From Amphibalanus amphitrite (lineage: Eukaryota; Arthropoda; Thecostraca; Balanomorpha; Balanidae): a stretch of 64,000 nt of DNA. The translations under genes and the position numbers were made by a program. Location of the stretch: contig NW_024881531.1 in the NCBI RefSeq assembly GCF_019059575.1, positions 372,001 to 436,000 of the forward strand. The letters run 5' to 3'. Under the pieces are notes generated by a model. It saw only the letters and a list, made by a program, of their open reading frames with translations. It did not search any database and was not told where the DNA came from. Shown here in pieces: positions 6,330-55,749 of the stretch. Positions within the stretch are counted from its first letter, which is position 1. Every line of letters begins with the position of its first letter.

Positions 6330-7041
6330 AGCGTGGATCTTGGCGTGGACTTATCTTGGACTTATCTAAACCAAAAATACAACTCAAACTGCGTTATTCG
6401 TATAAATAATAAATGGTGACCCGGGACCCTTCACACAAGAAGCACTTATCATGAAGGTCATATGTTCTTTACAAGATGTCAAAGTGCTGCACACGCAATC
6501 ATATCCTACACTGATTTGTTAATTTTAGCTTACTCTGCTAGTTTAGGCGTTATACGGAAGTCGTGAACAAAGTGTTTTGTTGTCGCAGCTGCGCATTTAA
6601 TGTCTCAAAAATTGCTAAGTCAGTGTAGCTAAATTTAACCTCTTCGTAAAGAATGAAAGCAAGGCTTATCGCAAGCTTATCGCCCCGTACGACGCAACGC
6701 GCTCAGGGTCAGATAATTTGTACGCAGGGGAATAAAACTTGCATGGCGTATGTGCTCCCACGTCCTTTCATTTGCATACCTATATACCTACCTAGTTTCT
6801 ACCTACCCATCTCGATTATTTTGCTTTTACGTAAAAGTCACATGATGAAGTCGGTCAACAAGCAACCATTAGGCCCGTAATCCGCGCCGATGGGGCCTGC
6901 CGAGCAAAGCGCACAGATGGACATTTTGCCGCCCCCCCCCCCCCCCCCGGGATCTCGAGAACCACACAATATAGCGACAAGCATAGCGACAAGCATCAAA
7001 CGGTGTTGGATAGCCCCAACTGGGAACTACCTTAAGTGACC

Positions 7042-7613
7042 CAGGGGCGTCGACACCGGTCCGACTTTTCCGACTAGTCGGACCACTTTTTCGACTAGGC
7101 GGTGCCCTGCTGTGGCTCGCGGGGGCCCTGCTGCGACCGCGGGAGCCCCTGCTGTGGCCGCGGGGGCCCCTGTTGGGGCTCTCGGGGGCCCTGCTGCGGC
7201 CACGGGGGCCCCGCTGCGCCTCGCGGGGCCCTGCTGCGGCTCGCCCCCCCCCCCCCCTGCTACAGAATGCGGGGGCCCTGCTGCGCCTCTGGGGCCCTGC
7301 TAGACACCGCGGGGGCCCCTTCTGCGGCTCGCGGGGGCCCTGCTGCGACCCGCGGGTGCCCTGCTGCGACTACGGGGCCCCTGGTGCGGCTACGGGGGTC
7401 CCTGCTGCGGCCACGGGGGCCCCTGCTATAGAATTCGGGGGCCCTGCTGCGCCTCTGGGGCCCTGCTAAACACCGCGGGGGCCTATACATTTGTATACTC
7501 ATGTATGTATGTAAATGTACGTTGGGAAGCCGTTCGACACCTGGGGGCCCCCCACCGGTGGGGGCCCCCCGAGAAAAAGTCGGACCAGTTTTCCTTACGC
7601 GTCGACGCCCCTG
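7042..7613. mobile_element. hAT-type MITE carrying a GGGGCCC minisatellite
   Basis: The ends are CAGGGGCGTCGAC and GTCGACGCCCCTG. The flanks carry a perfect 8-bp duplication, AAGTGACC (7034-7041 and 7614-7621), the hAT signature. Subterminal GTCCGACTTTT / AAAAGTCGGACC extends the inverted repeat. The interior (about 7100-7480) is a GC-rich array of roughly 27-30 bp units, CTGCTGCGGC followed by GGGGGCCC. Frames open across it are repeat artefacts. No transposase is present. Confidence 0.9.
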
Positions 7614-7806
7614 AAGTGACCCAATTTTATTGACCTCGGTTTGACCAATGACGTCACAGGTCAGGTCAAATATCGAATTTTCACCGTTTACACTTTACAG
7701 ACAGTTCAAGAAATATGTTGTAAAATCGAGTAAAAAGGCATATTATTAAAAATCATCGATATGCAATTGTCCGTCAAAGACATGTTTTACTATTTGAGGT
7801 CACTAA

Positions 7807-8842
7807 CATAGGCGGCGGAACGGGGAGGGCACCGGGGCACCGTGCCCCCCTTTGATTTTGGCATTTTGACATTAGCCCTATGGGCGTTGCATGGAAAGAA
7901 TGGGACCAAAAGTCGGCAGTGCCCCCCCCCCCCCTCCCTTAACCCTCGCCCGTATAGGGGGGGTGGAACGGACCCCCCTCGATTTTTCGCAAATAACTCG
8001 CGTAAAAAGCGGCCGATCGCGACGAAACTTTCAGTACCCTCGCGTTAATCAATTTTACACCCACCCTGAAATTATCATGACCCTGACCCTAATGACCTTT
8101 GACCTGTGACCTACTTTTCGAGACCATGTTTGGCCGGAATCGCGATTCGGCGTATGTCGGCTCGCATTAGCCGCGCGTTTGCAGTCTTTTCGTGGTTTTA
8201 AGCGTTCAAACATGGGATATGATGTTGCTTTCATGCATTAGGGTGGGTGTCAAGGTCACCGGAAGGTCAGGTCAGGTCATTAGCCTTTGGTGACCTCGGT
8301 TCACTTTTTCGAGTTTTACGTGTTTCTAGGCCAGTTTTTGGAGCTGAATTCGAATTTAGCAACCATATGAACATTTACGAAGTAGTTTTGGCACATTCGT
8401 AGCATGCTACGAAGCTGTCAGAGGCGGTTACCACCTACTACGAATACCCTTACTGGTTGACCTGACCTGACCTGACCCGACCTGGCCTAAATGCATGAAG
8501 ACATCATCTGTGATCAAAACTTACATGATATTCGTGATCAGCACCCCAAAAAAACCCATATCAGCCACGCTTTACGACTTTCTAACAGGTCCCGATATTC
8601 CCGACTTTTGGGTCATTGACCTGACCTGGAAGGTCAACCGATGACCAAGGACCTTAAAATTGGGTATCATCGGTTTCCTCTCGTCACGGGCAACACGCTC
8701 GGCTCGTTTTTTCCGCGAAGCTCTAGCTTGATCAGGGGCGAAACGGCAAGGGGGGTCCAACGGACCCCCCCCCCCCCCCTTATACGTTCGCGGCTGGAAA
8801 ATCACCAATACGGGCGAAGGTTAAGGTGTTCCGCCGCTACTG
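7807..8842. mobile_element. hAT-type MITE (CATAGGCGGCGGAAC family), filled copy
   Basis: The element starts CATAGGCGGCGGAAC and ends GTTCCGCCGCTACTG, with a perfect 8-bp duplication GTCACTAA (7799-7806 and 8843-8850). Without the TTAA-type element inside it (7943-8820 plus one TTAA) it would be 154 bp. The related copy at 23735-23889 is 155 bp, so that copy serves as the unoccupied version. Confidence 0.9.
7943..8820 (+). mobile_element. TTAA-type MITE (piggyBac-like), CCCTCGCCCGTAT family
   Basis: TTAA flanks both sides (7939-7942 and 8821-8824). The left end CCCTCGCCCGTAT and right end ATACGGGCGAAGG are inverted repeats. Just inside each end sits a G-tract, a short spacer (TGGAACGGA or TCCAACGGA) and a C-tract. 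The 878-bp body holds AGGTCA/TGACCT runs and no reading frame for a transposase. Known family feature: piggyBac elements duplicate TTAA and begin CCC/CCY. The assignment to piggyBac is inferred from the ends only. Confidence 0.85.
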
Positions 8843-8939
8843 GTCACTAATACCAGATCAAGTCAAAGAGGTCAGGTCACTGAGGGTCACAGTACGGAAG
8901 TTTCGTGTGATACATGTTTTATGGTCCAAATGTTTTATG

Positions 8940-9655
8940 TTTTATGGACAAATGCGATAATGTGGGTCAGGCAACCTTTAAAAAATCGGGACCTGTTAGA
9001 ACGTCGTAAAGTGTGGCTGCTAGGGGTTTTTATCAGGGTGCTGATCACGAATATCGTGTTAGGTTTGATCACAGATCATGTCTTTAAGCATTTAGACCAG
9101 GTCGGGTCAGGTCAGGTCAGGTCATCCAGTAGGGGTCGTGACGGGTATTCGTAGTACGTGTCAACGGCCTCTGGCAGTTTCGTAACATGTTACGAAGGCA
9201 CCAAAACTACTTCGTAAATGTTCAAATAGTTTATAAATTCGAATTCAGCTAAAAAAACTAGCCTAGAAACACGTAAAGCTCGAAAAAGTGAACCGAGGTC
9301 ACCAATGTTCAATGACCTGACCTGACCTTCAGGTGACCTTGACATCCACCCAAATGCATGGGAGCAACATCAAATCACATATTTGAACGTTTGAAACCAC
9401 GAAAAGCTTGCAAAGGCGCGGCTAATGTGAGCCGACATACGCCGAATCGCGATTCCGGCCAAACATGGGTTCGAGAAATAGGTCACAGGTCAAAGGTCAC
9501 TTGGGTCAGGCTCATGAAATTTTCAGAGGTAGGTGTAAAATTGATCAACTCGAGGGTACTGAAAGTTTCGTCGCGATCGGCCGCTTTAAACGCGAGTTAT
9601 TCGCGAAAAAAACCATGGGGGAGGGTCCATCCGACCCCCCCCCCCTCTACACATG
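8940..9655 (-). mobile_element. truncated reverse copy of the CCCTCGCCCGTAT family
   Basis: The order of recognisable blocks (GGTCAGGTCAGGTCAGGTCA near 9103, AACATGTTACGAAGG near 9184, AAAGTGAACCGAGGTCACC near 9285) is that of 7943-8820 read backwards. The right end has the hairpin near 9615-9645 but decayed terminal bases. The left end is missing. Boundaries are approximate. Confidence 0.65.
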
Positions 9656-10044
9656 CGATGGGTAATAAAAATGCTTTTTATTTTGGGGGGTCAAGGTAAC
9701 AAAATTTTAAAATCCGAGATAGCAGTTTTGTAGCGCCGTCTTTTCTCTACACGGCCACATAAAGAACATTAAAATTGCTCGTTAGCTGTAGCTTTTGTGA
9801 GCGTTTCAAGATTTCATTCTTTTAGCTCATTTTTGCTCGAACATGACCTCAGTTTGACCTCAACAACTCCTGACCTAAGGTGGCCTAGGTATACCTAACT
9901 TGAAATGTTTGTGTGATGGTGTTAACTTTATGTTTTGAAAGGTAGGTACTGAAAATTTGGCGGCGCTGCGCACCGCCGCGCCGTTTTTCCCTATTCAAGA
10001 AAAACCACAGGGGGGCAAAATGCCCCCATCAGGGCGCGGGATAA

Positions 10045-10785
10045 GACATAGGATAAGTCAATGGAGATTGGAGGGAATATGAAAAAAGAATATTTTGACA
10101 CCGTAAATGGTCTCCAACTAATTCAAGCACATGAAATCGTGATTCGTGGTTTCCTATACTCCTAGCATTTATCGCAAGGTCCGATTATTCAGTTTTGCAC
10201 TGTGGTAGGTATACGATAATACGGACTGTCACGAAGCTCGCTTCAGGTCATCGGATTATATTTTCAGTAACTCCCGAGCGAAATTTATTTAGTGAGGCAC
10301 AACGGAATAGCCGCCTATGTAAGCAATAGATCCCGAAAGACCTGTCGAATCGATTGACATTCAATGTGACCTCATGCGACAAACTTTATGACCTGAGCGA
10401 CTGCAAAGACCAAGTTGACCTTTTCTGATAAAAGTAATCATTCGACGCGCCTGGGCATGACGAACAGGATGGTGCCAAATTCCAAAATCACGACATCTTT
10501 ATTATCCTTTACGAAGTTAATTACCAAAGCAGGCTCCTGCTTTTGGGGCCTTTCTGACCTCAGAGGTCACTGGCTGGCCTGAAAATTAACATTGTGTAGG
10601 TAAGTACCAGATACTTACTACGCCTTGTAAGGGCGCACACGGCTTTCTTCTGCGAAGCTCACAGCTCAAGTAGGTAGGGTTGAAACGGCGATGTGAACGG
10701 CGATGTGGAACGCCCCCCCCCCCCCCCCCCCGCCGCTACCCTCGGCCGTCTTCCTTATGAAGAAACCCGATAAGTCCGGCAAGGG
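10045..10785 (+). mobile_element. right part of a TTAA-type MITE, 47804-50758 family
   Basis: The sequence from CTCCAACTAATTCAAGCAC (near 10112) through CATTCGACGCGCCTG (near 10440) to the end GTCCGGCAAGGG follows the element at 47804-50758 block by block. It is followed by TTAA at 10786-10789. The left end is not present in recognisable form, and the two flanking TTAA-type copies abut here. Confidence 0.6.
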
Positions 10786-11446
10786 TTAAGCGTCGCTTTA
10801 CAGGTCCCGCTCTAGCCTCATTTGTATGCAGCCGTGGATAGGCGGGATACCATACCGGTCGGAACTGCAAGCCAGGCTATAGTCCGACCGGCTCGGCCCG
10901 GTTGTGCGGCGCCGGCTATCTGCAGGTGTTTGTGTGCACAGTCAGTACCTACGTCCGACCACCCCGGCTGACGGCTCTGTGAGCGCTGGGTCTCTGACCG
11001 GCCGGTCTGTGTTTGCACAGTGATCGTTTGTGCAGAGGGCGGCGTCGACAGGACCTGTGTGCTTGACCTCGTTCTGACCTGCGACTGCGCCCACGTCTCC
11101 TCTCTGGCGGAGAGAGACATTCCAAACTCGGGGAGCGAGTCCAGCCTGAAGGTGGTCGGTGGTGTGAGCAGAGAGGGTGGGCGAGGGAGGTAAGTATTCG
11201 CTACCCTTTACTTTGCTCTTGTTTGATAATTGCTCTTAATTTACTGTAGTGTGTGCCTCGAAAGGCAGATGGGTATTTCCCACCTTTGTGCGTAACCAGG
11301 CCTTTCCGGCCAGACATGAGCGCGCTCATTACATTATGCCCGGCCGACTCATTCAATGTTCCGGGGATCGCATGGATGGAACATCTGCCGTCTCTACTTC
11401 CGTTGTAAATCTGGTGAGTGGTGACGCCATCCCTATTACACCTGGA

Positions 11447-11519
11447 TGACGTCACAGTATTTGAGCCTGGCGCGGCTGGCACCGTTCTGATTGGTCAGCC
11501 GGCGGGGCGGAGAGCCAAT
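11447..11519 (+). promoter_or_regulatory. candidate promoter of the Id-type gene
   Basis: A perfect CRE (TGACGTCA, 11447-11454) is followed by an inverted CCAAT box (ATTGG, 11490-11494) and a direct CCAAT box (11515-11519). All lie 130-210 bp before the start codon at 11654, in a CpG-rich stretch. This layout fits a housekeeping or immediate-early type promoter. No TATA box was seen. The transcription start is not placed; a donor-like GGTAAGTATT near 11190 leaves an upstream 5'UTR exon possible. Confidence 0.5.
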
Positions 11520-11653
11520 CAGCGCTCGGTGGCTGCCACCTGTCGGCTGCCGCCGCCGCCGCCCCAGCGCGGCCAGCTGTGCGGGCAGTTCGTCGCTGTG
11601 GGTCTGTTGCGTTGGTCCGCCGCTGCGCAGTTCCAGAATCTCACCGCGGAGCT

Positions 11654-12043
11654 ATGAAGGCTGCTGTCGTGGACACGGGTCGCTCTGCGCGACTACGAGC
11701 GGGTATGAAGACTCCCCGCGCCCGGGCGGCGTCGGTCGACTGTGCCGATCAGGTGCAGCTGTACCTGAACCGCCTGACCGCCCTGGTGCCCTCTGCGCCC
11801 AAACACCGGCGGCTCTCCAGGCTGGAGGTGATTCAGTATGTCATCGACTACATCTGTGACCTGGAGGACACCCTACTCGGCCGCCAGCTGCCGCGCCACA
11901 GCGAGCGAGAGGACACCGAAAATGGTGACGACGCGAGCGAGCGCCCCAGGACGGCCGCCCACGCGAGGACGGCGCCGACCGCTCCGACCGAGGGTGACTC
12001 ACAGGAGGATATGGACCGGTCTGGTCAGGTGAGCACGCGGTGA
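11654..12043 (+). CDS. emc: Id / extramacrochaetae-type HLH protein, first coding exon
   Basis: The frame from ATG 11654 encodes a helix-loop-helix at about residues 36-72 (VQLYLNRLTALVPSAPKHRR and, after the loop, LEVIQYVIDYICDLED). This is the Id/emc form, with the near-invariant VIDYICDL. No basic DNA-binding stretch precedes it. Known role: it dimerises with E-protein/Daughterless and proneural bHLH factors in the nucleus and keeps them off DNA. The N-terminal MKA resembles emc. After the HLH the protein is acidic and then Ala/Pro/Thr-rich. A strong donor (CAG|GTGAGC) follows codon 125 at 12028; Id genes typically have an intron after the HLH. Unspliced, the frame stops at 12041-12043. 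The 3' exon is unresolved: one candidate begins at 12507 after TTCCAG and encodes only PPPPPPAAGS before TAA. Confidence 0.88.
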   Translation: MKAAVVDTGRSARLRAGMKTPRARAASVDCADQVQLYLNRLTALVPSAPKHRRLSRLEVIQYVIDYICDLEDTLLGRQLPRHSEREDTENGDDASERPRTAAHARTAPTAPTEGDSQEDMDRSGQVSTR

Positions 12044-23600: not shown

Positions 23601-23734
23601 GGGAGCGAGAGAGGAAATATTTAGTTGTGTCAGCTTGTTTCACATGTAAAATGTAAATTTGCTTTCCATCATTACAGCCTCGGATTGGAAATTAAATCTT
23701 AGCATCCTTATGATAAACCCACGTTGACGGGATG

Positions 23735-23889
23735 CAGTAGCGGCGGAACACCTTCAATTAAGGGGGGGGGGGGGCACAGCCGACTTTTGGTCCTATTATT
23801 TTCATGCAACGCTCATAGGGCTAATGTTGAAATGCCAAAATCAAAGGGGGGCACGGTGCCCCGGTGCCCTCCCCATTCCGCCGCCTATG
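23735..23889. mobile_element. hAT-type MITE (CATAGGCGGCGGAAC family), empty copy
   Basis: Read on the minus strand it is the 155-bp short version of 7807-8842. The ends are CAGTAGCGGCGGAAC and ATTCCGCCGCCTATG. The 8-bp flanks ACGGGATG (23727-23734) and ACGGGAAG (23890-23897) match in seven of eight positions. It has one TTAA where the other copy holds a TTAA-flanked element. Confidence 0.88.
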
Positions 23890-25045: not shown

Positions 25046-25574
25046 TGGTCGACATAGCGACTCGGACTGAACAAATGCCTTTAACGTTTCAACGGTTGAA
25101 TAGGGTGAGAGGATTGAGGTAGGCTTGTATCGGATTTTCTTCTGCTTGTCGGTAGTTTAGGTTGAATTTAATTTCGCCAGCTGTTCATAATCATTCAAGA
25201 GGGAAAATTCAGCTGCACATCGTTCGGGTCAAAGTAATACCAAACATTCTCAAATTTTGTAGTAAAGAGCCAGTAGTCTACGAATATAGGTATTCAAAAA
25301 ACAATTAGAAAAAGAATAAGCGGACCGGTTTCGTCCATCAAAGACTTCTTCAGCGCTTTTTCAAAAACGTATGAGAAGAAAACTAGCACAGTGACAATCG
25401 TTTGAAATAAAATTGGATTCAGTAAGAACTAAGAACTTCATTGTCCGAAAACCGCTGACAGTTGATAGCTCAATGACACTTAGAGCCGTGCATAAGGAGG
25501 CGTGAAAACACTCTCCTCATCTCGTTCTATTACGAGAGGACCATGTCATGGCGTAAGAAAGGTGTATGCTGCAT

Positions 25575-26425
25575 AAAGAGGTCATTGATGCCAGGTCAGT
25601 TCACAGAGGTCAGGTCACTAAGGGTAACAATATGAACCCAACTATGCTAGGATTGTGTGATTCATGTTTTATGGCCAATTTTGCATTTAAAATTCAATGG
25701 TGTGGGCTAGACGGCCATTGGGGTCAGTTTAGATTACATTCTGGTGGAGGTCAGGTCAAGGTCAGGTCAAAGAAGGTGAAATTTCAAAGTTGATATTTTG
25801 CGTAAAAGGGGTATCTATTCGATGCAGCTCATCACATGAAATCCAATGGTGGTCTTTGGCTTGCTCTGTGTGTTCTGTGACGGCTAAAAATAGAATTAGA
25901 AAATTTTGCGTAATAAATTTTGAGTAGTTTTTTTTTTTTTTTTGCTATAACTTTGCTAAAAATGGAGCTATCGAGTTTAAAGTTTGACATATCTAGAGCA
26001 GATAGTTCTATAACATATATTTCAGTTTTAATTTTGAAAGTTGTTGGTATTTTCGGGGTGTTATACTTCTATAGTTTTGATGGTCAAAATCAATTTTGGT
26101 TTGGAAATAAGAGTTAGCAGTTTGGTAGCGCTGTTTAGTTTACATCTTTTTGATCTTGAATATTTTTCGTTATCTTCAAAACTGTAAGCGTGACAGCTCT
26201 TCCCGCTATACCTTTTATTGGGTCGAAAATGACAGAACATGACATCCTTCTGACGTCATTTGTGACTAACCTTTCATAAGAGCTCTGGAAAAATTTGGTC
26301 ACAAGGTGTAAAAATGCATGCCCGGAGGGTCTTGAAAGTTTGGTGGCGACATTTGCTATACTTTAGGAGATATCGACTGAAAAGGAGAGAGGGGGCCGTT
26401 TCGCGCCCCCCCCTCAACGGGGCTT
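25575..26425 (+). mobile_element. decayed TTAA-type MITE body, 37223-38422 family
   Basis: Words in the same order as in 37223-38422 include GAGGTCAGGTCACTAAGGGT, TTTTATGGCCAATTTTGCAT, AGGTCAGGTCAAGGTCAGG and TGACAGCTCTTCCC. It closes with a G-tract/C-tract hairpin near 26390-26415. The left end is missing; boundaries are approximate. Confidence 0.55.
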
Positions 26426-37218: not shown

Positions 37219-37222
37219 TTAA

Positions 37223-38422
37223 CCCGCGCCCTGGTGGGGTCTGTTTATAACGCGACCTGGTGGGGGGGGGCTATTTTTTGCCCCCCCTCGTATCTCCGAA
37301 ACTACTTGACGGATCCTCAAAATTCAAACGGCGTTCGAAAGGCCTGTCAAATTTGTTGAGGGAAACCAAATTTCATTGACCTCGGGGTCACCGATGACGT
37401 CACAGGTCAGGTCAAAGATGACATGTTTCACCGTTCACGGGTCATCTAGGGAATGCGCTATAACACCGAAGAAAACGCATTTTGTCGAGAATCAGCGATA
37501 GGGCGTCAGTTGCCTAGTACATATGTTGCTATAAGAGGTCACTGACAATACCAGGTCAGGTCACAGGTCAGGTCACCAAGGGTCAGAGCCCAGAGGTCAG
37601 GTCACATGAACCTAACATTAGGTACTTAGGTTGTGCGATGCATGTTTTATGGCCAATTTTTCATTTCCAACTCAATGGTGTTGGTTATAAGACTATCAGG
37701 TACGGCTTAGGTCACTTTCTGGTGAAGGTCAGGTCAAGGTCAGGTCAAGAAAGGTCAAATTTTAAAGTTGATAGTTTTGCACAAAATGGGTATTGATTCG
37801 ATGCAGCTCGTCACGGGGAGTCTAATGGTGGTCTTTGTTTTGCGCTACGGGGTCTAGAATTGCTAAAAATTGAGTTTGAAAATTTGACGTCATCAATTTT
37901 GAACAGTTTTTTTCGCTATAACTTCGCCAAAAAATGAGGTATCAATCTCAAATTTGGTATGTGGATAGAAGGCGGTAAGGACTATCATATATATTCCGAT
38001 TTTTGCGAAACTCCAAAAACTTTTTGGATTTTTCGGTTATTATATTCAAAAAATCTATTTTTTGATTTTTGGGGGTCAAAATCCAAAAATTTCAAAAATC
38101 CGAGATAGCAGTTTTGTAGCCCTGTCAATTTTACATATTTTATGTCTTGTCGTTTTTCTGTATTTGCAAAGCTATAGGCCTGACAGCTCTTCCCTCGAAA
38201 CCCTTTTTTTGGTCGAAAACGGCAGAACATGACGTCACTCTGACGTCATTTCCAGCCAACCTATCATAGCCTTTGGAAAAATTTTGGTCACGATGTGTAA
38301 AATTGATGTCCGAGAGGGTACTGAAAGTTTGGTGGCGATTGGCGCAGCGGTTCTGGAGATATATCGAAAAGTCTGGAGGGGGGGGGGGCAAAAAATAGCC
38401 CCCCCCCCCACCAGGGCGCGGG
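37223..38422 (+). mobile_element. TTAA-type MITE (piggyBac-like), CCCGCGCCCTGGTGGGG family, intact ends
   Basis: TTAA flanks both sides (37219-37222 and 38423-38426). The ends CCCGCGCCCTGGTGGGG and CCACCAGGGCGCGGG are inverted repeats. Each end has a hairpin of G-tract, CTATTTTTTG or its complement, and C-tract. At the left only, the word CCTGGTGGGG is repeated 26 bp further in. The body contains about a dozen AGGTCA half-sites and one TGACGTCA near 37395. No transposase frame. Confidence 0.88.
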
Positions 38423-38426
38423 TTAA

Positions 38427-42269: not shown

Positions 42270-44010
42270 TAGATAGTTGGTTTAAGCCTAAGCTTTTAAA
42301 ATCAGTTGCATTTTCGGGTCAAACCAGGTCACTGAACTATGATGTCATAAGTCAACCTCTGCTCGGTCAAAAAAAAAAAAAAATGTCGCCACTTCACAAA
42401 GGCAGCGCACTCAGTGCGAGGAAATCTTTCGCAGGGAGCTGAAGCGTTTTTTAGTTTTAATGGTGGCCGCCTGGGGTCAGTTCGGTCACGTGACTTCATT
42501 AAAGGACAACGAAGAAACTATGAAAACTCTTATTTTGACGACAGAAATAAGTTAGCCCCCCCCCCCCCGTATAGTGGGGGGTCAAACGGACCCCTCCTCG
42601 GTTTTTCGCGAATAACTCGCGTAAAAAGCGGCCGATGGCGACGAAACGTTCAGTACCCTCGAGTCAATCAATTTTACACCGACTTTGAAAATTTCATGAC
42701 CCTGACTTAAATGACCTTTGACCTGTGACCGATTTCTTGAGGCCCTGTTTGGCCGGAATCGCGATGCGGCGTATGTCGGCTAGCATTAGCCCTGCGTTTG
42801 CAGTCTTTTCGTGGTTTCAAGCGTTTAAACATGTGATATGATGTTCCCATGCGTCAGGATGGGTGTCAAGGTCACCTGAAGGTCAGGTCAGGTCTTTAAC
42901 CTTTGATGACCTCGGTTCACTTTTTCGAGTTTTACATTTTGAACATTTATAAAGAAGTTTTGGTGCCTATGTAACATGTTAAGAAGCTGTCAGAGGCGGT
43001 TCACACGTGCTACTAATACCCAGCAGGACCCCTACTGGTTGACCTGACCTGACCTGACCCGACCTGGCCTAAATGCATGAAGACATCATATGTGATCACA
43101 ACTAACATGATGTGCGTGATCAGCACCCCGACAAAAACCATAGCAATTAGCCGCCACACTTAACGACGTTCTAACAGGTCCCGATTTTCCCGACTTTTGG
43201 TCCATTGACCTGACCTGGAAGGTCAACCAATGACCTAGGACCTTAAAATTGTCATCGGCTTCCTCTCCTGACGGGCCACACGCTCGTTTTTTCCGCGAAG
43301 CTCTAGCTCGATCAGGGGCCAAGCGGCAAGGGGGGTCCAACGGACCCCCCCCCCCCATACGTTCGCGGCTGGAAATCACCAATACGGGCAAGGGTCGAGG
43401 CATTATTAAATATAAGGCACATTTATTCGTAACTTAATGCATTTTTTTGCAAGGTTTTATGCAAAATCATTATTTTCTTGCCTTGCATGGCATCATATGT
43501 GACGTCTCTAAGGTCGTCTGAGGTCATCGGAGTTTTCCGTCGAAACCTCCCGATCAAATTAAACTAGCGGATGACGAAGGCCACAAATGAACCCAGAAAA
43601 TAAAAAGCCTACCCAATTCATCAATATGAAATATGATCTCTTTCGAACAGCTTCGTGACTTTTTTACCTGACCTAGACCTGAGTTCAATAAACTTGGCTA
43701 AACTTTTCACAACAAAAGGTTTATCATTGAACGCGTCAAAGCAAGGCGAGCATGAAAGTGTCACAATTGAGGTTCTGAGACTATTTTTGGCAAAACCTTT
43801 TCCTAAAAAAAAAACAGAATCTTACCTTAGGCCTCCTGGCCGGAACTTAGATATTACCAGGTGCCCTAAGGCTTTGAAATAATTAGTTCGCAAGTCAATA
43901 GCTAATACGTTGTAAATCCCGAACTCGAGAAAATTTACCATTCGATAACCTCTCGTGGCATGACCTTTGACCTGACCTAAATAATGACATATATTTTTAT
44001 TTTTCTGAAT
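42270..44010 (+). mobile_element. decayed TTAA-type element (47804-50758 family) with inner copy
   Basis: Blocks at 42335-42360 (ATGATGTCATAAGTCAACCT) and 43490-43690 follow the order of 47804-50758. Between them a decayed CCCTCGCCCGTAT-family copy sits at about 42552-43394 (CCCCCGTATAGTGGGGGGTC to AATACGGGCAAGGG). Flanking TTAA words are mutated (TTAG, TCGA). No coding capacity was seen. Confidence 0.6.
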
Positions 44011-45406: not shown

Positions 45407-45419
45407 AGTCACAGAGCGG

Positions 45420-46698
45420 CTCGTGCCGATACCGACGGTTGCGAGGCGGATCTTTGTTAGGAAGGCTGTTGTATTGAAAATTATGCGGACTTTGTTTTTA
45501 ATACGTGCCTTTATGGCATGGTGGGTTGCTAATAAAGTGTTATAAGTATTTTTGAAGCAGCTCACTCAGCTTTCTCTCTTCGACCAGCGGCAGTGTGATA
45601 AAGCGATGCTATCAACAGCCAATGAAATTCAATGGGGATGTAGCATTTGCTGTCATGACCATACAAGTGTATGTGTGCAAACATCAGCCAGCACCAATCA
45701 TACTATAAGCGTCTTGCTTCCTTTTTAGCGCTGAATACGTTTCAATCATTTTTACAATTCATTTTTTATTAAGTTGCTAAGATTATCATAAAATGCTATT
45801 AATTTTTCCCGGCAGCCTTGTGCTCTAATCGATCTCCGAATTGACATAGGACAGATATGGCTATCGAGCCCAAGGGCCCTTCGGCTCTTCGACTTAATCT
45901 TGCCTTCGTTGCGTGCCTAACACGGGCATCCATTGTTATTTCTGTACTCCATCCCACGCTCGCGTTGCTGAGCTCAAACATACCCAAAACATATCCAGTA
46001 TCCACTCCTATGATAGATAAAATAATTCCTCAGCTAGATGAAAATATAACAGCTTAGGGATATGCAATTGAGATTCGCAAGCAATAAATGGATGCACATT
46101 GCACTGCATTGTATGCATACAGCCGTTCAGCACTGCATATTCTCCGAAGTATCTCGTTCAGTGTCAATATTGGTCTATATTTATATCTCTCCGTCATGCA
46201 GTCAGCAATCAGTCTGTGACAACATCATTACCACCATCCCCTCTCCTAGTTGTGACGTCACACCCGGTGCCGTGACCGCTGTGACCGGGGACGGGTGAAC
46301 AAATAGAGGGGAGACGGTCGCGCGCTATTTTGACGATGCTGTCAGTCTGTTGGGCCCTCCACATCCCCTTAGCATTATTGGTGTTCGACAAGGCGAGATC
46401 AGAAAGGGTATACCGAAACCAGATAGGTCGTGGTAGTGTCAGGTTTCATACAGTTCATTTCGTTTGTTGCGTGCGGTTCTCGCGTGCAGAAAACTCCTCA
46501 TAGTTGCGGCACTCTGCCGATTTGATTTGAATTGTTTTACTAGTTCAAAGAAGCAAAAGTAAACTGATTTCATGGGTCAGATGAAATGATAAGTTTCAGT
46601 GCATTGTAGATGGCACACGTTATTTAAATCACAGATGCGGTATCCCTAAAACAAAATGTTTTGACTACGAGCATAGCTATGGATGCTAGCATTCATGG

Positions 46699-46700
<2 letters not shown>
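45420..46700. other. no gene seen
   Basis: Mostly AT-rich. A CpG-rich patch at about 46250-46330 contains GTGACGTCAC (a CRE) and GTGACCGC words and may be regulatory. Confidence 0.35.
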
Positions 46701-46998
<298 letters not shown>

Positions 46999-47803
46999 TC
47001 CCCCACTCCCTCTCTCTCCGACGTCGGCAGTTCAACCCTATCCGCCTCTCTGTTGGACGTACCGCGCTCTTTACGACCGGCCGCCGCCCTGTCGTGCTCT
47101 CCCGTCGTAGTCGCCACGGCCACAGCTGGCCAGCCGGCCGGCGAACCCACTCTCTGTTTGACAGTCGTCGTGACGCCCAGCATTGTCGCTATTTACGAGC
47201 GCCAGCTCTCGACTCATCCCGCCGGCAGCCGGCACTATAGCTCAGTGTTTACTCGATAAATACTCATGGGGACTGTCACAGGTCTAAACACTCCTCCTTT
47301 AGCGCTCCTAAGCAGGTCTCATGCCACTAACCCTTTTTCTCGCTGGATTATTTCGCATTTACGTCTAGGGGAGACCCGGGAGGTATGGGCCCTCGGGAGG
47401 TGGGCCATCCCAGTTTTGAAGAAGTGTTGCGTATTTTTACACATTTGACCGCAGAAACTAGTAGCAGCCATTTCGTTTTATAACCCACGTGATTTCCAAA
47501 ATCTTCCTCAGTCTTCTTTGGCATTGAGCGATGATAAGCGCTTTTGCCCTCTTCGAGTAAAATACGGTACGTACAGAAAATTTATGATAAATTTGAACCA
47601 GGCTCCTTTTATTATGTCAGACCATCGCTAACATAAAGCTTAAAGCATGCAAATTAAGACTGGATAGACAATTTGAAGCTTTCTTGCAAGATTATGAGCT
47701 GAAATGCTACGCTCATTTTGGCGTCCTAGCCGGGAGGTTCGGGCCACCCACCCCCGGTGATCCTAAATCAATGAACTGATGCTTTTATTGAATGTCCTCT
47801 TAA

Positions 47804-50758
47804 CCCTCGCCGGCCGAGGGGGGGGGGCGGGTGCCGCCCCCCCCCCATAGGGTTTTTTCGCGATAGCTCCGAACACGCTGGCGATAGAGAGCTGAAACTT
47901 GGCATACCTGACCTTTGATCCAAGCCGCATCTTTTGACACCAACCGCATTTTTGGGTCAGGTCAGGTCACTGACCTATGACGTCATAAGTGAACCTCTGC
48001 ACGGTCTTCAGATGTCGCAACTTCGCAACGCCCTCACTGCCAGAGGAGATGTCACAGGGAAATGAAACTTGCAGGATCTAGTATCCATTATGAGTCTCAC
48101 AACTTGTATATCTCGGATTTTTCCTAAAGGTCATATGAGGTCAGGTCATTTTCGTGACCTCACCATTATAAGTCAATGGGGAAAAATGAAAACTGCTATT
48201 CTGGCGCCGGGAACGATCTCCAACTATCTCAAGCACACAGAATCGTGATTTGATGCACTCCTTGCAAGGTTAGATGCGTCACTTTTGCAATGTTGACCTT
48301 GCGTGACGTCATTTATGACGTCATCAAGGTCATATTAGTTTTTCGTCAATAACTCTTGATCAAATTGAGCTAGCGAGTCGGGAAAGCCACCAATGGACTC
48401 AGGAAGACCTGCCGAATCGAATGATATGCGACATGACCTCTTTCGACCAACTTCGTGACCTGGGGGTGCTGACCCAGCCAGCAATTTTGCTCCGGGCCCA
48501 AGCAGGCTCAAGTGCGGATTGCCCGAGATTTTTAGTCGGGCTAAAGTCGGCTAGGGCTTGGGCTAAAGTCGGCGTATGACACAAAAACGCCGACTAAAGC
48601 CCATGCTCTGCCGGAGGTATGCCCGCTCTGCGAGCTCTGGACAGCCGTAGTTTAGCCCTAGTTGAGCGACGATTGGCGTTAGCCCGATTTAAGCCCGAGC
48701 AGTGAATCCATTTATATAATGGAGATTACTCTGGGCCCGAGCGGGCTGAACTCCGGCAAGCCCACTCTGTGTGCCCTGTCTATCCCGACTTAAGCCATAG
48801 AAGTGAATGGGGTTTATACATTGCAAACTGCTGTGGCTTTGCTCGGGTTCGGCTCGAGTGACGGCTCCTGTTTTCTCAAGTCTCGACTTGACTTCATCTT
48901 GCTTTTACTTCACACTGGATCAAGTAGCAAGGAGCAGCCAATGCACTTTCAGCAGGTTGTGCGGTTTCAATGCATATTTAAAATTGTTACGGTCACTCAT
49001 ATGCTCTGTTAACCGGTCATCGAGCATTGCGAAAGGAAAGTAGTGGTTGACTTTGATTGAATGTATATTTCAAACGACTACAGACACTCAAATGAAACAC
49101 AAATACATGAAACAGTGGACTGCAAACTGCAGCAACAATATAGCATGAGTCATGAAAAAGCGCCATCAAAACTATAAAACAATCAAAGGCCCGCTAGCCT
49201 CCCTCCCCGTTCATAATACTTGGTTGAACACTCAACCGAAAGCGCAAAGTAAGGACAGCAAGTAATCGCTCATAAGACATAAAGCAATTAGCAAACAATC
49301 GTTTATAAGGAACTTTACTCTGGTGAATGGGAGCTTTGGAGGCGTCTGGCTCCTCCACACACACACACATCTGCAGTAGGTGGTCGGCCAACTTTCGGCG
49401 CAGTTTCCGTATCTCCGTAGGTATACCGTATTTCCGTAGATATACTTACTTAATTATAAGCAGGCAGTTTCCGCTAAACAACTTGGCGAGGGCGACTGCG
49501 GCGTCCACCCGGTCCTGGTTTGTATAACTATTCTATTTTTTGGAGCCATTTGCTCTAATGGTACGTACCTGAAAAAGATATTAATTGGTTTAATTTACAT
49601 TGCATGTTTGCTTGAAAAATAACTTATTGTTGCATCAATACTGTAAAAGCACTTCTCATTGATCCGTATAAAATGGTCATTCGATTTTCAACGCGGACAG
49701 AGAATGAGCGTGCTCGGTGATAAGTAGATAAATATTTGTGTTTTGTATTTCATTTTCCTGGTTCAGAAGTGCTGATATTTCACAAAGATATAAAGGCACG
49801 GAATGCGGCTTTTCTGAGCGAGGGTATAAGTCGCCAGGCTGAACAGCTATTCAGATTCATGTTTGATGGCGTGAAACTCAGTCAAAATCATGACGTTTAC
49901 ATACGATCAAGCGCACCATTCAATACACTTACCTACCGTAAAACTCCACGCCAGTCCATTTGATAAGAGCAGTGAGCACTATCCCTTCTTCGCGCTGTCA
50001 CACGCGCCCAAACATCAACCACCAAATGCCTCAACACCGGTGTGTCGTTTCGTCGCACAGCGCACAGACTGTCACAAACGCTGCACATGATTGGCGCAGA
50101 ACTGCGCATGCGCGAACAGCCGAACAAGTATGGCTAAGCTCCGGCTTTACTCCAGTTAGCCGAAGGACACAGCCAGCTTGATCAGCCCGCGCTCCGCCCA
50201 AGTTAAGCCTGTTTTGGATGCGCGGGCAGATGTCGGGCTGAGCTACTGCTATCCGCACGTGGGCATAGCTGCGGCATGCCCCAGTTCAGCCCTAGTAAAA
50301 ATGCATTGGTTTTGATCAAAGTGGGCAAACCCAAGCTAAGCCCAAGCTGCCCGACGTTTGCCACAGTTCAGCCCAAGCGAATTGCTGGCTGGGGACCTGA
50401 CCTTGACCTGAGGTCAACACCCCAAGTTGACCTGACCCGGACAAAAAGTATATCATTCGACGCGCCTGAGCGAGGCGAACACGATGCTGCCAAAATCGCG
50501 GCTCTGCGGCCGTTTTTTGCGAAGTTATTCACCAAAAACTGAACCGTACCCTGGGGCACTTGACCTGACCTCAGAGGTCACCGGTTGACCTAGGACCTTA
50601 AAATCGGGTACCAATCTCTGCGTCTCGTAACGGCGCACACGCTCGTTTTTTCCGCGACGCGCTAGCTCCACCAGGGGCGAAACGGCGAGGGGGGGGTCGT
50701 ACCCGCCCCCCCCCCCTCGGCCGGCGCGTATGTAGAAAACCAATAGGTCCGGCGAGGG
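47804..50758 (+). mobile_element. TTAA-type MITE (piggyBac-like), CCCTCGCCGG family, with nested insertion
   Basis: TTAA on both sides (47800-47803 and 50759-50762); ends CCCTCGCCGGCCG and GGTCCGGCGAGGG. The left hairpin is G-tract, CGGGTGCCG, C-tract; the right one is G-tract, TCGTACC, C-tract. AGGTCA and TGACGTCA words fill the body. An inverted-repeat element at 48473-50393 is inserted in it; without that it is about 1.0 kb, like its relatives. Confidence 0.85.
48473..50393. mobile_element. inverted-repeat element CCCAGCCAGCAATT
   Basis: The ends CCCAGCCAGCAATT and AATTGCTGGCTGGG are inverted. Near both ends the sequence repeats variants of GGGCTAAAGTCGG, GGGCCCGAGC and AGCCCAAGC in both orientations (48500-48800 and 50120-50375), so the termini are built from an iterated word. 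The middle (48830-50100) is AT-rich with no supported gene. It interrupts the TTAA-type element around it. Confidence 0.7.
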
Positions 50759-50762
50759 TTAA

Positions 50763-51916
50763 CCCGCGCGGGGCTGGGGTCTCCAGCCGAACGCGCGGGG
50801 CTGGGGGGGGTAAATTTTACCCCCTGTTATCTCCCGAACTAATGGTCCGATTTGGAAAATTCAAACGCCAATCGAAAGCTCTCATCACGAACTACTAAAC
50901 ACATGTACTTAATTTAAAGTTTGAGGTCAAGGTCAAGGTCAGGTCAAGGGTACAAATTGCAAGTTTCTACAGTATCGGCCTTGCACCGTAGTTGCCGAAG
51001 AATGGAGTCATGGACTGAGACTGATCGCCCAAAACGTGTTCTTAGGCTACCAAGACAATATTCGTTGCATACAATATCATTCAGAGGTCAAGGTCAAGGT
51101 CAGGTCAGGTCAGGTCAGGTCACCAAAAAACAAAATATAGAAAAGGGCATGTGCGACACATGTTTTATGGGTCATTTTACTCATAGAATTCAATAGGCAC
51201 ACTCAATAAGTGATATGGACCACCTCTGGATGAATTTCAGGTCGAGGTCAGGTCAAGGTCAGGTCAAGTGAGGTCAAATTTTGAAGTTGGTTGTTAAGGC
51301 CTAAAAAGGTGTCTATCTGATGCAGTTTTTCACGGCGAATCGAATGGTGCTATTTTTGTTTTCGTACGAGGTCTAGAACTTCCAAAAAAGTCATTTTTCA
51401 AAAATTTTGTGTGTCGTGACGTCATAAAATTTTGAATAACTCCCACATTTTTGAACCGATTCTTCTAAAATTTGGTATGTAGGTGCACATAGACCACTCC
51501 TCTGACATATATTCCGGTTTTTCGATAGACTCAAAATTTTGGATTTTATAATGATTTTCCAAAAAAAGTCAGTTTTTTGAAAAAAAATTAGGCCAAAATC
51601 CAAAATTTTCAAAAAACCGAGATAGCCATTTGATAGACAAAGTAAATTACGTATAACCTTTTTTGTTACGTCTTCATTCCTTTAAAAATGAAGATGTTAG
51701 CGGCGTTTGAACTTTTGCCGTTTTTGAGGCGAAAATGGCGAACATGACGTCACTAAAACGTCAATTTTTCAAAAATTTTCCGACGGATTTCGCTCAAATT
51801 TTCAGGGAACGTGTCAAATTGATGTAAGAAAAGGTACTGAAACTTTGGCGGCGCTGCGCGCCGCCAAAATTCGCGAGGGGGGGTAAAATTTACCCCCCCC
51901 CCCAGCCCCGCGCGGG
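50763..51916 (+). mobile_element. TTAA-type MITE (piggyBac-like), CCCGCGCGGGGCTGGGG family
   Basis: TTAA at 50759-50762 is shared with the preceding element; the right TTAA is at 51917-51920. The ends are CCCGCGCGGGGCTGGGG and CCCAGCCCCGCGCGGG. The left word CGCGCGGGGCTGGGG is repeated 27 bp further in. Hairpins are G-tract, TAAATTTTA or TAAAATTTA, C-tract. The body has AGGTCA runs near 50925, 51086-51120 and 51239-51265. No transposase. Confidence 0.88.
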
Positions 51917-53067
51917 TTAATAAGTTTTATTTTTGTCTCACAAGGTCGAAAATTTAAGTACAAATTGCACTCGAACAGAAAAATATTATTTGTCTTAGTT
52001 CATGGAACATGATTAGAGTTTACCTAAATACATATGTGCCCGAGTGACCTCCATGAAGTAAGCTGATGGCCGCTTGGCGGTACCTGGGCTCTAAGAGAGC
52101 TCAAGGTAGAGCCCAGCTACGAGTATCGTTCTATCATCGAGAAAAGAATATAAAACATGACACCGGCCCATACCTCCCGGGCCATGGCTCATACCTCCCG
52201 GTGTATTTTGATTGATCGAAAAAGCGCATGATTTATTTAAAGTTATCTCGAGACAAAATAGTTGATCCCAGATGCCTAATATCAGGCACACTTTACAGGC
52301 GAAAGGCAATTTCACGTGCACAAAGTGAAAAACCAGGTCTAGCCACTGCCCACTGGAAGATAATTGCCTTTTTCACAAAAGCGGCCCATACCTCCCGGGT
52401 CTCCCCTCCTACTGTTTTGTAGCCAATTCATAGTTAGGCTAAAAATGGCAATAGATGGCAGCAAATCAAGTACCGTAAACCGGGGTGAGTTGATATGGGG
52501 TGGTGAGTTGATATAAATTGCTCGAAAAATGTTAAAATGTGTGCTGCTCATCCATTTGTAAACCAATTTTTAGTTTTATTTTTCTGTGAAGTGAAGCAAC
52601 CAATAAGTGATGCATATAGCTGAGAAAGGCATGCATGTGGTGCAGTGCCTTCTTAACACATTACTTTTTTCAAAGTCCTTTTTTTCTTCTGATTTTGAAA
52701 CTAAGGAAAAGTCCCCACCCTACAGCAAAGACGGTGGATATTCATGAAACAACATGCACTGGGAAAGAAACTACCATCAATTTACTGTTGATCCCAGGTA
52801 GTTTTGGGTTTCACCTATAACAACGCTTTTTTATAATTTTAAGAAAAGTGACAGGTGGTGAGTTGATATGCCATCAGGTGGTGAGTTGATATGCATGATA
52901 AAAGCTGATACCAGGCTGGTAGGCATGCAAATTAGCATGAAATATGGGTCTGCAGGTAAGACAAAGTCAATTAGACCAACTCTTCTCCTTTTCTTTCCCC
53001 ACATCATTCCATCAACCCCAAAAGCTTTAGTTTTTTCTGAATGCTTGAGACGAGGCCTGTTAGTATC

Positions 53068-53404
53068 ACTGATGTTAGTTGTCGGACTTTCGTCCCCGTC
53101 TTGAGTTGAGATGTTAGTTTCACAACGTTTCAGCCAGTAGCTTCTCCGGCCGTAGTCAAGCCTGCCTCGATAGTGGAGTGGTTACAACCGTGGACCATCA
53201 CCGGGGAAACCCGAGTTCGATTCCCGCTGACTACAGGAGCTTTCGAACTGTTTGACGCGTACGGCGCAACGCCACCAACATCCAGGTTCTTGAGGGTCAA
53301 AGAACACCTGACGAGTGACGACGGCCGGAGAGTAACTGGCCGAAACGTTATGAAACTGAATCTCAACTCAAGACGGGGACGAAGGTCCGACAACTAACAT
53401 CAGT
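53068..53404 (+). mobile_element. foldback element with a tRNA-like core
   Basis: Imperfect inverted repeats of about 90 bp begin ACTGATGTTAGTTGTCGGAC at 53068 and close at 53404. Shared blocks include CGTCCCCGTCTTGAGTTGAG and CTCTCCGGCCG-type words. The centre (about 53163-53233) carries a good Pol III A box (TAGTGGAGTGG, 53171-53181) and B box (AGTTCGATTCC, 53214-53224) at tRNA-like spacing. A similar 26-bp sequence (AACCCCAAA...TTTTTTCTG) lies on both sides, near 53015 and 53406, and may be a target duplication. It is not a functional tRNA: the arms do not fold cleanly. Confidence 0.7.
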
Positions 53405-53722
53405 AACCCCAAAGTTTTTTTTTTTCTGTGGACATACCTAACATGCAAAAGGCACAGCACAGCTCCCTGTCAAGTCTCAAGATGGCTCCCTACAAGCTAC
53501 AAAGGAACACTATAGAACACCTATATTACATACAGATTAAAAAAAACTGTTATATTTATTCGTAGTTTCGAAAATGACAGAACTGTCATTTCTGTATGGC
53601 TAACAGCGCGGGAATTCTGATCTCGTGAAACTGATTAGTTTTCCTGCTTGGCAGTTGCCAACCGAGAATGAGAGGCAAAATGAAATGGAACAAACAATAT
53701 AAAGAAATTGACTGGTGTTTAG

Positions 53723-54592
53723 CCCTCGCCCGTATTCGTGTTTTGCCAGCGTTTAACGTATGGGGGGGGGGGGTCCGTTGGAATCCCATCGTCGTTTGGC
53801 CCCTGGTGGAGCTAGAGCTTCGCGGAAAAAATGAGCGTGTTGCCCGAGACGCGAGGAAGCCGATGATAACCAACTTGGTCATTGGTTAACCTTCCAGGCC
53901 AGGTCAATTACCCAGAAGTCGGGAAAATAGGGGGTTATTTGAAGTTCGTAAAGCGAGTTTATTATTTTTTGGCTGTTGCTGATCGCGAATGTCATGTTAG
54001 TTTTGCTCATAGATGTCTTCGTACATTTAGGCCAGGTCAGGTCAGGTCAGGTCAACCAGTAGGTGTCCTGCCGGCTATCCATAGGGAGTGTCAAGTGTCA
54101 GCTACCACTGACGGTGTCGTAACATGTTACGAAGGCACTAAAACTACTTCATAAATGATCAAATGCATGTTAAATTCGAAATCGGCCCGAAAAAAAAACT
54201 ACCCTAGAAACATGTAAAACTCCAAAAAGTGAACCGAGGTCACCAAAGGTCAATGACCTGACCTGACCTTCAGGTGACCTTGACAGTTGACACCCAAAAT
54301 ACTGCGTGGGACCAACATCATTTACATGTTTGGACGTTACAATCACAAAAAGACTGGAAATGCGCGGATAATGTGAGCCGACTACGCCAAATCGCGATTC
54401 CGGCCAAGCATGGTCTCGAGAATCAGGTCACAAGTCAAAAACCATTTGAGTCAGAGTCATGAAATCTTTAGAACATGTGTAAAATTGATAAACTCGAGAG
54501 GTACTGAAAGTTTCGTCGTGATCGGCCGCTTTTTGCGCGAGTTATGTGCGAAAAGCCGAGGTGGTCCGTTCGCCCGCCTATAAGTGCGAGGG
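53723..54592 (-). mobile_element. TTAA-type MITE (piggyBac-like), CCCTCGCCCGTAT family
   Basis: The left end CCCTCGCCCGTAT follows TTAG; the right end GTGCGAGGG is followed by TTAA (54593-54596). Internal blocks match 7943-8820 in reverse order (GCCAGGTCAGGTCAGGTCAG near 54031, AACATGTTACGAAGGCAC near 54121, AAGTGAACCGAGGTCACC near 54228). It is inserted in the larger element 52470-55339. Confidence 0.8.
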
Positions 54593-55749
54593 TTAATTTT
54601 GGCTTTTGATGCCGAATTCTGTTTTATGTCGCTTAGAATACAGTCCGAATTAGATTCGCTTCACTTCACTTCATTAATATTTTGTTGACTACCAGTCAAC
54701 AAAAGCTCAGAAGTATATGTATTCTTTCATTTCAATCCATTATTTCTGTCAGAGGCATATCAACCTTGACCCGCAACTGACAATGTGTTTTAATTACAAG
54801 AAAATACACTTGTAATTCCAAAATATATTGCCAGTTTTGATACCGTTGGCTTGAGGACACGTGACTAGCCAAGTTCAGAATGTTCTAAGTAAAACTAAGT
54901 ATCATAAAGCGAAAAAATGATGCTGCTAAAATCAAGCCATTTTGATCGCGCTGTGTTGGACATGATTGCGTTTTCATGAATGTGAGGTCTGCTGCCAAAC
55001 TACTAGCATTTTTCTAATGGTTTCTTTCAGGATGTGTTCTCTCATCCTTTTTTTAAACACTGGCATTTTATCAACTCACCTCTGAGCTTCTTTAGCCGAG
55101 AAATTTTGAAAAATCCAAAATCATATCAACTCACCCCCTGTGGGGTGGTGAGTTGATATGAACTTTGGCGTTTTAAAAAAGGGGCTTAATATATACATTT
55201 TTTATTCATTTTTGCTGATTGCCTCCCCAAGGCATGTGCCATGAAACTGGCACAAAAAGAATTCCGTAAATGAATGTGGCTTTTAACGAAATCTAGAATA
55301 ACCTCAAAATCCATATCAACTCACCCCGGTTTACGGTACAAAAAGGAAATTTGTATCAGTGTATATTCTTATTTATCATTGTTTCCACCATTCATGCTTT
55401 AATTTGGTGCTAATATTTAATCAATTAATTAGATGATACATAATTACCTATAGCATTAACAGTTTACTCTATGAATCAGCAGAAGAGGATCGGCAGCAAA
55501 TCAGGCCGAACATGCGGCACATCGTAATAAATAAACACCGTAAGACCTGACTCCTGACACCCCTCCCCCTCCGATCACCATGTCCGCGGGCTGTCAGTCA
55601 TCACTACCCTCAGCGAGTCTCCCCTGCGCGCGTGGGCAGGTGCCCAACCGTGCAGAGGGGATCCTCTGACCCACAGACCGTCTTTTTAGCCGGCGCCCAG
55701 TATCGCGTTACCGGCGGCTATTTGTCGGGAATTCACGGTCGGCAGGGGT

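What the first reader, a model, noticed from the sequence alone, without database searches (positions are those of the whole stretch)
6881..54596. A set of TTAA-inserting element families with shared architecture
At least four families with different terminal words (CCCTCGCCCGTAT, CCCTCGCCGG, CCCGCGCCCTGGTGGGG, CCCGCGCGGGGCTGGGG) share one plan: TTAA on both sides, CCC...GGG inverted ends, a G-tract/C-tract hairpin just inside, and a body of about 0.9-1.2 kb full of AGGTCA words with related wording such as GTACTGAAAGTTT. Intact pairs of TTAA were read at 7943-8820, 37223-38422, 47804-50758 and 50763-51916. Known: piggyBac duplicates TTAA and starts CCC/CCY. Inference: one transposase lineage mobilises several diverged non-autonomous families here.
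Basis: partly seen in the sequence, partly recalled or inferred. Interest (0 to 1): 0.75.

Follow-up and report, generated by a model that had tools for sequence, protein, structure and literature searches.

The report
Sibling piggyBac transposons and miniatures
The repeats are real jumping-gene families that insert at TTAA and belong to one branch of the known piggyBac group; their ends keep the odd lopsided layout of the insect piggyBac element, which makes that layout's purpose testable.

Summary
All four TTAA-flanked elements are at the stated places. In the window's own 807.55-Mb genome the end words occur thousands of times, mostly behind TTAA where both counts exist: A 3,740 of 5,150, C 2,401 of 2,936; D 4,238 and B 3,131 ends were counted with TTAA only. 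The genome holds autonomous piggyBac elements (PF13843; DDD residues and Cys-rich tail aligned to T. ni piggyBac) with the same plan: TTAA, CCC...GGG ends, G/C-tract palindromes, AGGTCA arrays. Their transposases form one clade apart from 11 other piggyBac rows. Family A matches non-coding ends of two clade members at 81-87% (one short piece 98%); the C word is shared with a third. Correction: not one enzyme but a clade of diverged ones, apparently with matching end words. New detail: one end carries the terminal word twice, 26-28 bp apart in 15 of 15 elements scanned, the register of T. ni piggyBac's right end; the 'hairpin' sits where that transposase's C-terminal domain binds. The register is not absolute (A has a 24-bp subfamily). 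Kolobok is excluded by its RR...YY ends. Ordinary in kind, informative in detail; the role of the AGGTCA arrays is unknown.

The parts
7939..8824 (+). Family A copy A1 (element 7943-8820) with both TTAA; simple end left (CCCTCGCCCGTATAGGGGGGG...), double-word end right
   Evidence: pieces 85-98% identical to 5' and 3' non-coding parts of autonomous C778
7957..7978 (+). Left G-tract/C-tract palindrome of A1, position of the piggyBac CRD-binding palindrome
   Evidence: functional reading is inference from PMC7351741
8751..8790 (-). Second copy of the terminal word (26 bp inside the right end) and right palindrome of A1 (approximate limits)
8982..9641 (-). Partial, inverted family A copy
   Evidence: 86% to A1
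42556..43400 (+). Second family A copy (decayed ends, approximate limits)
   Evidence: (82% to A1)
53719..54596 (-). Third family A copy with TTAG / TTAA flanks
47800..50762 (+). Family B copy (element 47804-50758) with both TTAA; double-word end on the right, offset 28
48473..50393 (+). Unrelated element nested in B (perfect 14-bp TIR CCCAGCCAGCAATT, 2-bp duplication GA by the empty site in L010)
37219..38426 (+). Family C copy (element 37223-38422) with both TTAA; double-word end on the left, offset 26
50759..51920 (+). Family D copy (element 50763-51916) with both TTAA, sharing the left TTAA with B; double-word end on the left, offset 27
25565..26349 (+). Diverged relative of family C
   Evidence: 72% over 834 aligned columns
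10650..10789 (-). Remnant of a B-type double-word end (CCCTTGCCGGAC) behind TTAA (inner limit approximate)
6878..6960 (+). Decayed end resembling the CCCGCGCCCCGTTGGG family seen in L005 and L042; flank no longer TTAA
   Evidence: read by eye, compared

Best explanation
The four families are non-autonomous (MITE-like) cut-and-paste transposons moved in trans by one clade of piggyBac transposases encoded elsewhere in the same genome. Shown: TTAA on both sides, CCC/CCY...GGG ends, autonomous relatives with the same plan and a DDD piggyBac transposase, a TTAA empty site for a sister family of the same plan, and family A built largely from the non-coding ends of such autonomous elements with the coding part gone. 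Shown for the ends: a simple end (word + G/C palindrome) and a double end, in which word and palindrome recur 26-28 bp further in; in the three autonomous lineages read at both ends the double end is the 3' end. Inferred: as in T. ni piggyBac, a transposase dimer grips the outer words, Cys-rich domain dimers grip the palindromes, the inner word binds a second dimer that makes the synapse asymmetric, and the excised element joins to TTAA. Also inferred: each sublineage of enzyme serves families with its own end word.
For: TTAA: A 3,740 of 5,150 exact words, C 2,401 of 2,936; D 4,238 and B 3,131 ends counted with TTAA only. Spacing of facing ends among the listed places: D 35 of 37 pairs 1,173-1,224 bp, A 17 of 20 pairs 854-916, C 18 of 19 pairs 1,178-1,209. 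Autonomous elements: P, three copies read at both ends, about 99% identical over about 3.98 kb; C778 and C33. PF13843: P E 2e-69 and C778 2e-71, C33 place 4e-58. PDB 6x67 T. ni piggyBac against P: E 2e-78 with D268, D346, D447 and CRD cysteines aligned. Clade P+C778+C33 100/100 in a 14-row tree. A 1-474 and 669-838 match C778 in pieces at 85-98%, A 1-414 and 669-828 match C702 at 81-86%. C word with C33's own spacer: 21 of 100 listed double ends, 19 of them letter for letter. Offsets 26-28 in 15 of 15 elements scanned, among them three A and three P copies. Empty site of sister family H: 12 of 20 distinct paralogous sites keep a single TTAA.
Against: No autonomous element with exactly the A, C or D interior was found; C33 shares with C only about the last 48 bp and a few short internal words, and for D there is only a similar word beside C412, where one end alone was read. 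The offset is not fixed: of 100 listed A double ends 59 are at 26, 29 at 24, 8 at 25 and 4 elsewhere; of 100 D ends 7 depart, by -1 to +13. C702 is broken and its outer 3' end was not seen; C778 carries a nested element and its 5' flank reads CTAA, not TTAA. Only 116 of 232 PF13843 candidates were scored, and flanks of only part of those were read. D's total without TTAA was never obtained. Family E has the same ends but no AGGTCA. No clean empty site for A-D themselves was shown; A1 sits in a hAT-like repeat whose uninterrupted copy differs by a few bases at the junction. Transposition itself was not observed.
Confidence: 0.92

Rival explanations
1. They are Kolobok non-autonomous elements, the other superfamily that duplicates TTAA.
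For: Kolobok also makes TTAA duplications and occurs in arthropods (PMC9587614, passages).
Against: Kolobok ends are 5'-RR...YY-3' (same passages); the families here start CC. Autonomous elements with the same plan encode PF13843 piggyBac transposase. No search for Kolobok transposases was made.
Confidence: 0.02
2. A single currently active piggyBac enzyme (for example P) moves all four families by tolerance for the end word, recognising mainly CCC, the G/C palindromes and perhaps the AGGTCA arrays.
For: P is the best-preserved clade member read (three copies about 99% identical); palindromes and, except in family E, AGGTCA arrays are shared across families; PMC2872659 proposes such cross-mobilisation for coral MITEs (passages).
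Against: Words differ among families but agree within a family and with particular autonomous elements: C778 carries the B word CCCTCGCCGG, C33 the C word CCCGCGCCCTGGTG. No binding or mobilisation data.
Confidence: 0.2
3. The G-tract/C-tract hairpin acts as a folded structure (cruciform or G-quadruplex) rather than as a double-stranded binding site.
For: Tract lengths vary between copies while a pairing pattern is kept.
Against: Its place matches the 19-bp palindromic CRD site of piggyBac (bp 17-33 of the left end; PMC7351741), and the cores between the tracts are mostly palindromic themselves and family-specific (read by eye). Not tested by folding or assay.
Confidence: 0.15

Closest known systems
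T. ni piggyBac (transposase structure 6x67/6x68; PMC7351741, passages read)
   Same: TTAA; CCC ends; DDD plus Cys-rich domain; asymmetric ends, right-end bp 34-63 nearly identical to left-end bp 7-35, i.e. an offset of 27-28; palindrome inside the word
   Different: End words differ; palindrome built of long G and C tracts; AGGTCA arrays; transposase well diverged
piggyBat of Myotis lucifugus (9c0f; PMC11707139, passages)
   Same: Superfamily; motif-plus-palindrome units repeated inside one end
   Different: The left-end motif spacing given there is 44 bp (11, 55, 99), not 26-28, and its right end lacks the palindrome; P matches it far less well (3e-30 against 2e-78)
Coral CMITEs (PMC2872659, passages)
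   Same: Several TTAA MITE families with differing TIRs but a related interior, tied to piggyBac-like elements
   Different: No double-word ends or G/C palindromes in the passages read; the CC[C/T]T motif given there as general is broken at the fourth base by C and D (CCCG)
piggyBacs catalogued in Amphibalanus amphitrite (PMC10813416, passages)
   Same: Intact elements of 2,708-4,732 bp and 506-645 aa; C33 here is 4,723 bp including both TTAA and 645 aa from its first Met, so C33 may already be listed there if this is that species
   Different: Sequences and species not compared; MITE families and double-word ends not in the passages read
Kolobok / KolobokP (PMC9587614, abstract and passages)
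   Same: TTAA duplications
   Different: RR...YY ends, different transposase

Membership tests
piggyBac superfamily (A-D as non-autonomous members) | TTAA on both sides | tested here: met
   Window copies. Genome: fractions for A and C; D and B, counts with TTAA only
piggyBac superfamily (A-D as non-autonomous members) | Ends begin CCC or CCY, short inverted repeats | tested here: met
   the fourth base is G in C and D, outside the CC[C/T]T that PMC2872659 calls general
piggyBac superfamily (families A, B, C) | Autonomous relative with matching ends encodes PF13843 DDD transposase | tested here: met
   A/B: C778, C702, P. C: terminal word and plan of C33, interior not matched
piggyBac superfamily (family D taken alone) | Autonomous relative with matching ends encodes PF13843 DDD transposase | tested here: inconclusive
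   Only a similar word beside C412, one end read
piggyBac superfamily (A-D as non-autonomous members) | Insertion creates the TTAA duplication (empty site) | tested here: inconclusive
   Shown for sister family H of the same plan, approximate for A1, not for B, C, D
piggyBac superfamily (A-D as non-autonomous members) | Seamless excision | not testable with these tools
   Needs an assay
T. ni piggyBac-type ends | One end repeats the other end's word and palindrome about 27 bp further in | tested here: met
   15 of 15 elements scanned, best offsets 26-28 (not all independent); genome lists, with exceptions
Kolobok | 5'-RR...YY-3' termini | tested here: not met
   The families start CC

The most novel reading that the evidence does not exclude
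The AGGTCA/TGACCT arrays, found in most members of this clade (not in family E) and in none of six other piggyBac lineages compared here, and denser in the gene-less A-D than in the autonomous elements, are cis-acting parts of transposition: either an array of extra transposase sites (T. ni CRD sites contain TGACG) or sites for a host nuclear receptor that ties transposition to development or moulting. The miniatures A-D would then have outgrown their parents by enriching the array.
Probability: 0.2. Interest if true: 0.75.

Novelty: new variant of a known kind. Interest (0 to 1): 0.5.

Why it matters
The lopsided ends of piggyBac, a widely used gene-delivery tool, were called puzzling by the authors of its structure, who found that a 5-bp insertion in the right end lowers transposition by about half (PMC7351741). 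Here is a natural test set: eight or more families with different words keep the double unit at 26-28 bp in the copies scanned, with countable exceptions (a 24-bp subfamily of A; D variants up to +13) that say how far the rule bends. The well-preserved autonomous P copies and thousands of miniatures make word specificity, palindrome binding and the AGGTCA arrays directly testable.

Tried and rejected
Kolobok was considered and rejected on termini and on the autonomous relatives found. TTAACCC alone as a signal was rejected (12 sites, expected 7.9). Looking for an autonomous A copy among the listed facing A ends 2-6 kb apart was dropped because none of those places coincided with a PF13843 match. 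AGGTCA as nuclear-receptor direct repeats: the common GGTCAGGTCA spacing is 5 bp, which is not a standard receptor spacing (recalled), so that reading was kept only as a possibility. Strict invariance of the 27-bp register was rejected. Rfam and ARAGORN gave nothing in the window. Naming the organism: not done; a barnacle is only hinted at. Structure prediction, fold search and the RNA-model tools were not used. Papers: search listings 19, 48, 49, 83, 84, 94, 109; abstract and passages as cited; none read in full.
Full report
What is there. The window is G000:C34:372001-436000 of an unnamed 807.55-Mb genome, animal by its gene content (an Id/emc-like helix-loop-helix reading frame at 11465-12043; recognised from memory). 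B is about 1.04 kb plus a nested 1.9-kb element; B and D share one TTAA. Three further A copies or parts, a C relative, a B-end remnant and a decayed end at 6878 lie in the same window.

More than chance. TTAACCC by itself is not enriched in the window. The full words are, genome-wide: CCCTCGCCCGTAT 5,150 times, 3,740 of them behind TTAA (73%; reversed-word controls 0 and 29); CCCGCGCCCTGGTG 2,936, of which 2,401 behind TTAA (82%; controls 0 and 1); TTAACCCGCGCGGGGCTGGGG 4,238 (control 0); B double ends with TTAA 3,131 (control 0). For D and B the number without TTAA was not obtained. Among the listed places, facing ends stand at fixed distances: D 37 pairs under 3 kb, 35 of them 1,173-1,224 bp; A 20 pairs under 3 kb, 17 of them 854-916; C 19 pairs under 5 kb, 18 of them 1,178-1,209 (99 of the 100 C places).

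The autonomous relatives. A PF13843 search scored 116 of 232 candidates and all 116 matched. In the 30 loci that came with it, the facing ends that bracket a reading frame have other words (CCCATTARYGCC, CCCTTTACCGGG, CCCAGATCTGCC); A-D-like words occur there only as neighbours (for example L011, L028, L031), and one of the 30, L036, whose ends lay outside the locus, later proved to be C778. I fetched the 3' flanks of 40 of the other 86 matches: TTAACCCTCGCACGACC stands beside four copies of one lineage, P; many of the 40 showed no recognisable end. Three P elements were read end to end: TTAA on both sides, about 3.98 kb, about 99% identical pairwise. A protein search with P listed 89 matches: P copies 95-100%, C778 62%, C702 58-61%, C53, C542 and C235 52-65%, C33 with two equal-scoring copies 41%, further partial matches mostly 34-52%, and the remaining piggyBacs at 24-32%. 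Of 15 regions then fetched for 14 of these copies, double-word G-tract ends in a place fitting a 3' end were read for C778, C33, C412, C639, C1010 and C698. For C778 and C33 both ends were read and agree; for the other four only one end was read, so a neighbouring miniature is not excluded, and the C639 end is nearly that of miniature H. In the rest no such end was recognised.

Identity of the enzyme. P and C778 match PF13843 at E 2e-69 and 2e-71, C33 at 4e-58. P matches T. ni piggyBac (6x67) at 2e-78 and piggyBat (9c0f) at 3e-30; the three catalytic aspartates and the C-terminal cysteines align (residue numbers counted from the printed alignment, their catalytic role recalled). A non-clade lineage, L022, matches piggyBat best (2e-27 against 7e-10). 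In a 14-row tree P, C778 and C33 form a clade with 100/100 support on a long branch (the program warns that the long row C387 may be misplaced with respect to them; several rows are partial proteins).

Link between miniatures and enzymes. Family A 1-186, 182-389, 376-474, 669-715 and 712-838 match C778 at 85-98%, and 1-414 and 669-828 match C702 at 81-86%; C778 has extra sequence between its pieces, A lacks the coding part, and about 195 bp in the middle of A have no match in C778. B matches C778 at both ends (80-86%) and shares its word CCCTCGCCGG. C778 itself has the same word at both ends, flanked by CTAA and TTAA. C33 (4,723 bp with both TTAA, open frame of 666 codons, 645 from the first Met) has ends CCTTCGCCCTGGTG and CCCGCGCCCTGGTG; 21 of 100 listed C-word double ends have the C33 spacer, 19 of them without any change. 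The C and D interiors have no close autonomous match here.

The ends. In every family compared, one end is word + palindrome and the other is word + spacer + word again + palindrome. A scan of 128 TTAACCY ends (some in overlapping loci) for a second copy of the word 14-48 bp further in found 14 with at least 10 of 12 letters (10 distinct places), 13 at 27 and one at 26; shuffled tails reach this in 0.2%. Comparing the two ends of 15 elements (among them three A and three P copies) over offsets 8-59 in both directions gives 26, 27 or 28 as best in all 15. In the genome lists, whose patterns need exact words and allow offsets from about 9-15 to 37-42: C 1,556 matches, of 100 listed 79 at 26 and 21 at 27; D 2,045, of 100 listed 93 at 27, the rest at 26, 29, 32, 34 (three) and 40; B 3,131, of 100 listed 99 at 28, the last being two abutting ends; A 325, of 100 listed 59 at 26, 29 at 24, 8 at 25 and one each at 27, 29, 31 and 36. 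Copies of one family share descent, so the independent units are the families. T. ni piggyBac's right-end bp 34-63 are nearly identical to left-end bp 7-35 (PMC7351741, passages), the same register, and its 19-bp palindrome at left-end bp 17-33 binds the Cys-rich domain dimer. The G/C palindromes begin at about bp 15 here. That they are the binding site is inference.

AGGTCA. Density is 13-19 per kb in A-D, 6.6 in family H, 0 in family E, 6-12 in the non-coding parts of P, C33 and C778, 0-0.95 in six other piggyBac lineages, and 1.0 in the window outside the elements (coding limits of the six were set roughly). It is thus a mark of most of this clade, not of piggyBac or of the genome. TGACGTCA occurs 1-4 times in B, C, D, H and P, but not in A1, E, C33 or C778, and once each in two of the six other lineages.

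Empty sites. Family H (CCCGGCAGTTGC / CCCGCGAGTTGC ends, same plan) sits in C778; 12 of 20 distinct paralogous sites have a single TTAA at the junction, four have changed or lost it, and four P copies read AAAA. Other piggyBac lineages sit in B (L010, L023) and C (L028) copies at similar joints. A1 lies in a hAT-like repeat whose other window copy is uninterrupted but differs by a few bases at the junction.

Judgement. What I did not find described is the preserved piggyBac end register across families with different words, the G/C form of the palindrome, and the AGGTCA arrays: searches were seen as listings, with passages of five of the papers cited here; supplements could not be searched.

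Noticed in passing
window 48473-50393: 1.9-kb element nested in B: perfect 14-bp TIR CCCAGCCAGCAATT, apparent 2-bp duplication GA from the empty site in L010; superfamily not determined
   Followed up: partly
window 7807-8842 and about 23730-23889: hAT-like miniature (ends CATAGGCGGCGGAAC / CAGTAGCGGCGGAAC, 8-bp duplication GTCACTAA) that hosts A1; a second copy, on the other strand, is uninterrupted
   Followed up: partly
L043, L048, L049, L059, L060, L073 (and L054-L056): piggyBac (PF13843) lineages whose 3' similarity ends at ...TAT|CCTCTTGGCACCC or at CCTCTAGCGACCC without TTAA; possible non-TTAA target
   Followed up: no
G000:C1:2188324-2190686 and G000:C5:1139328-1139362: Two D copies, and a C and a D end, sharing one TTAA like B and D in the window
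   Followed up: no
G000:C1:326454, C3:69524, C15:761167: D ends with the same 7-bp longer spacer, perhaps a small subfamily
   Followed up: no
window 991-1188 and 2663-2860: 198-bp direct repeat, 100% identical
   Followed up: no
window 11465-12043: Reading frame with an Id/extramacrochaetae-like helix-loop-helix motif (recognised from memory)
   Followed up: no
window about 53180-53260: tRNA-like promoter boxes by eye, possibly a SINE; ARAGORN reports no tRNA
   Followed up: no
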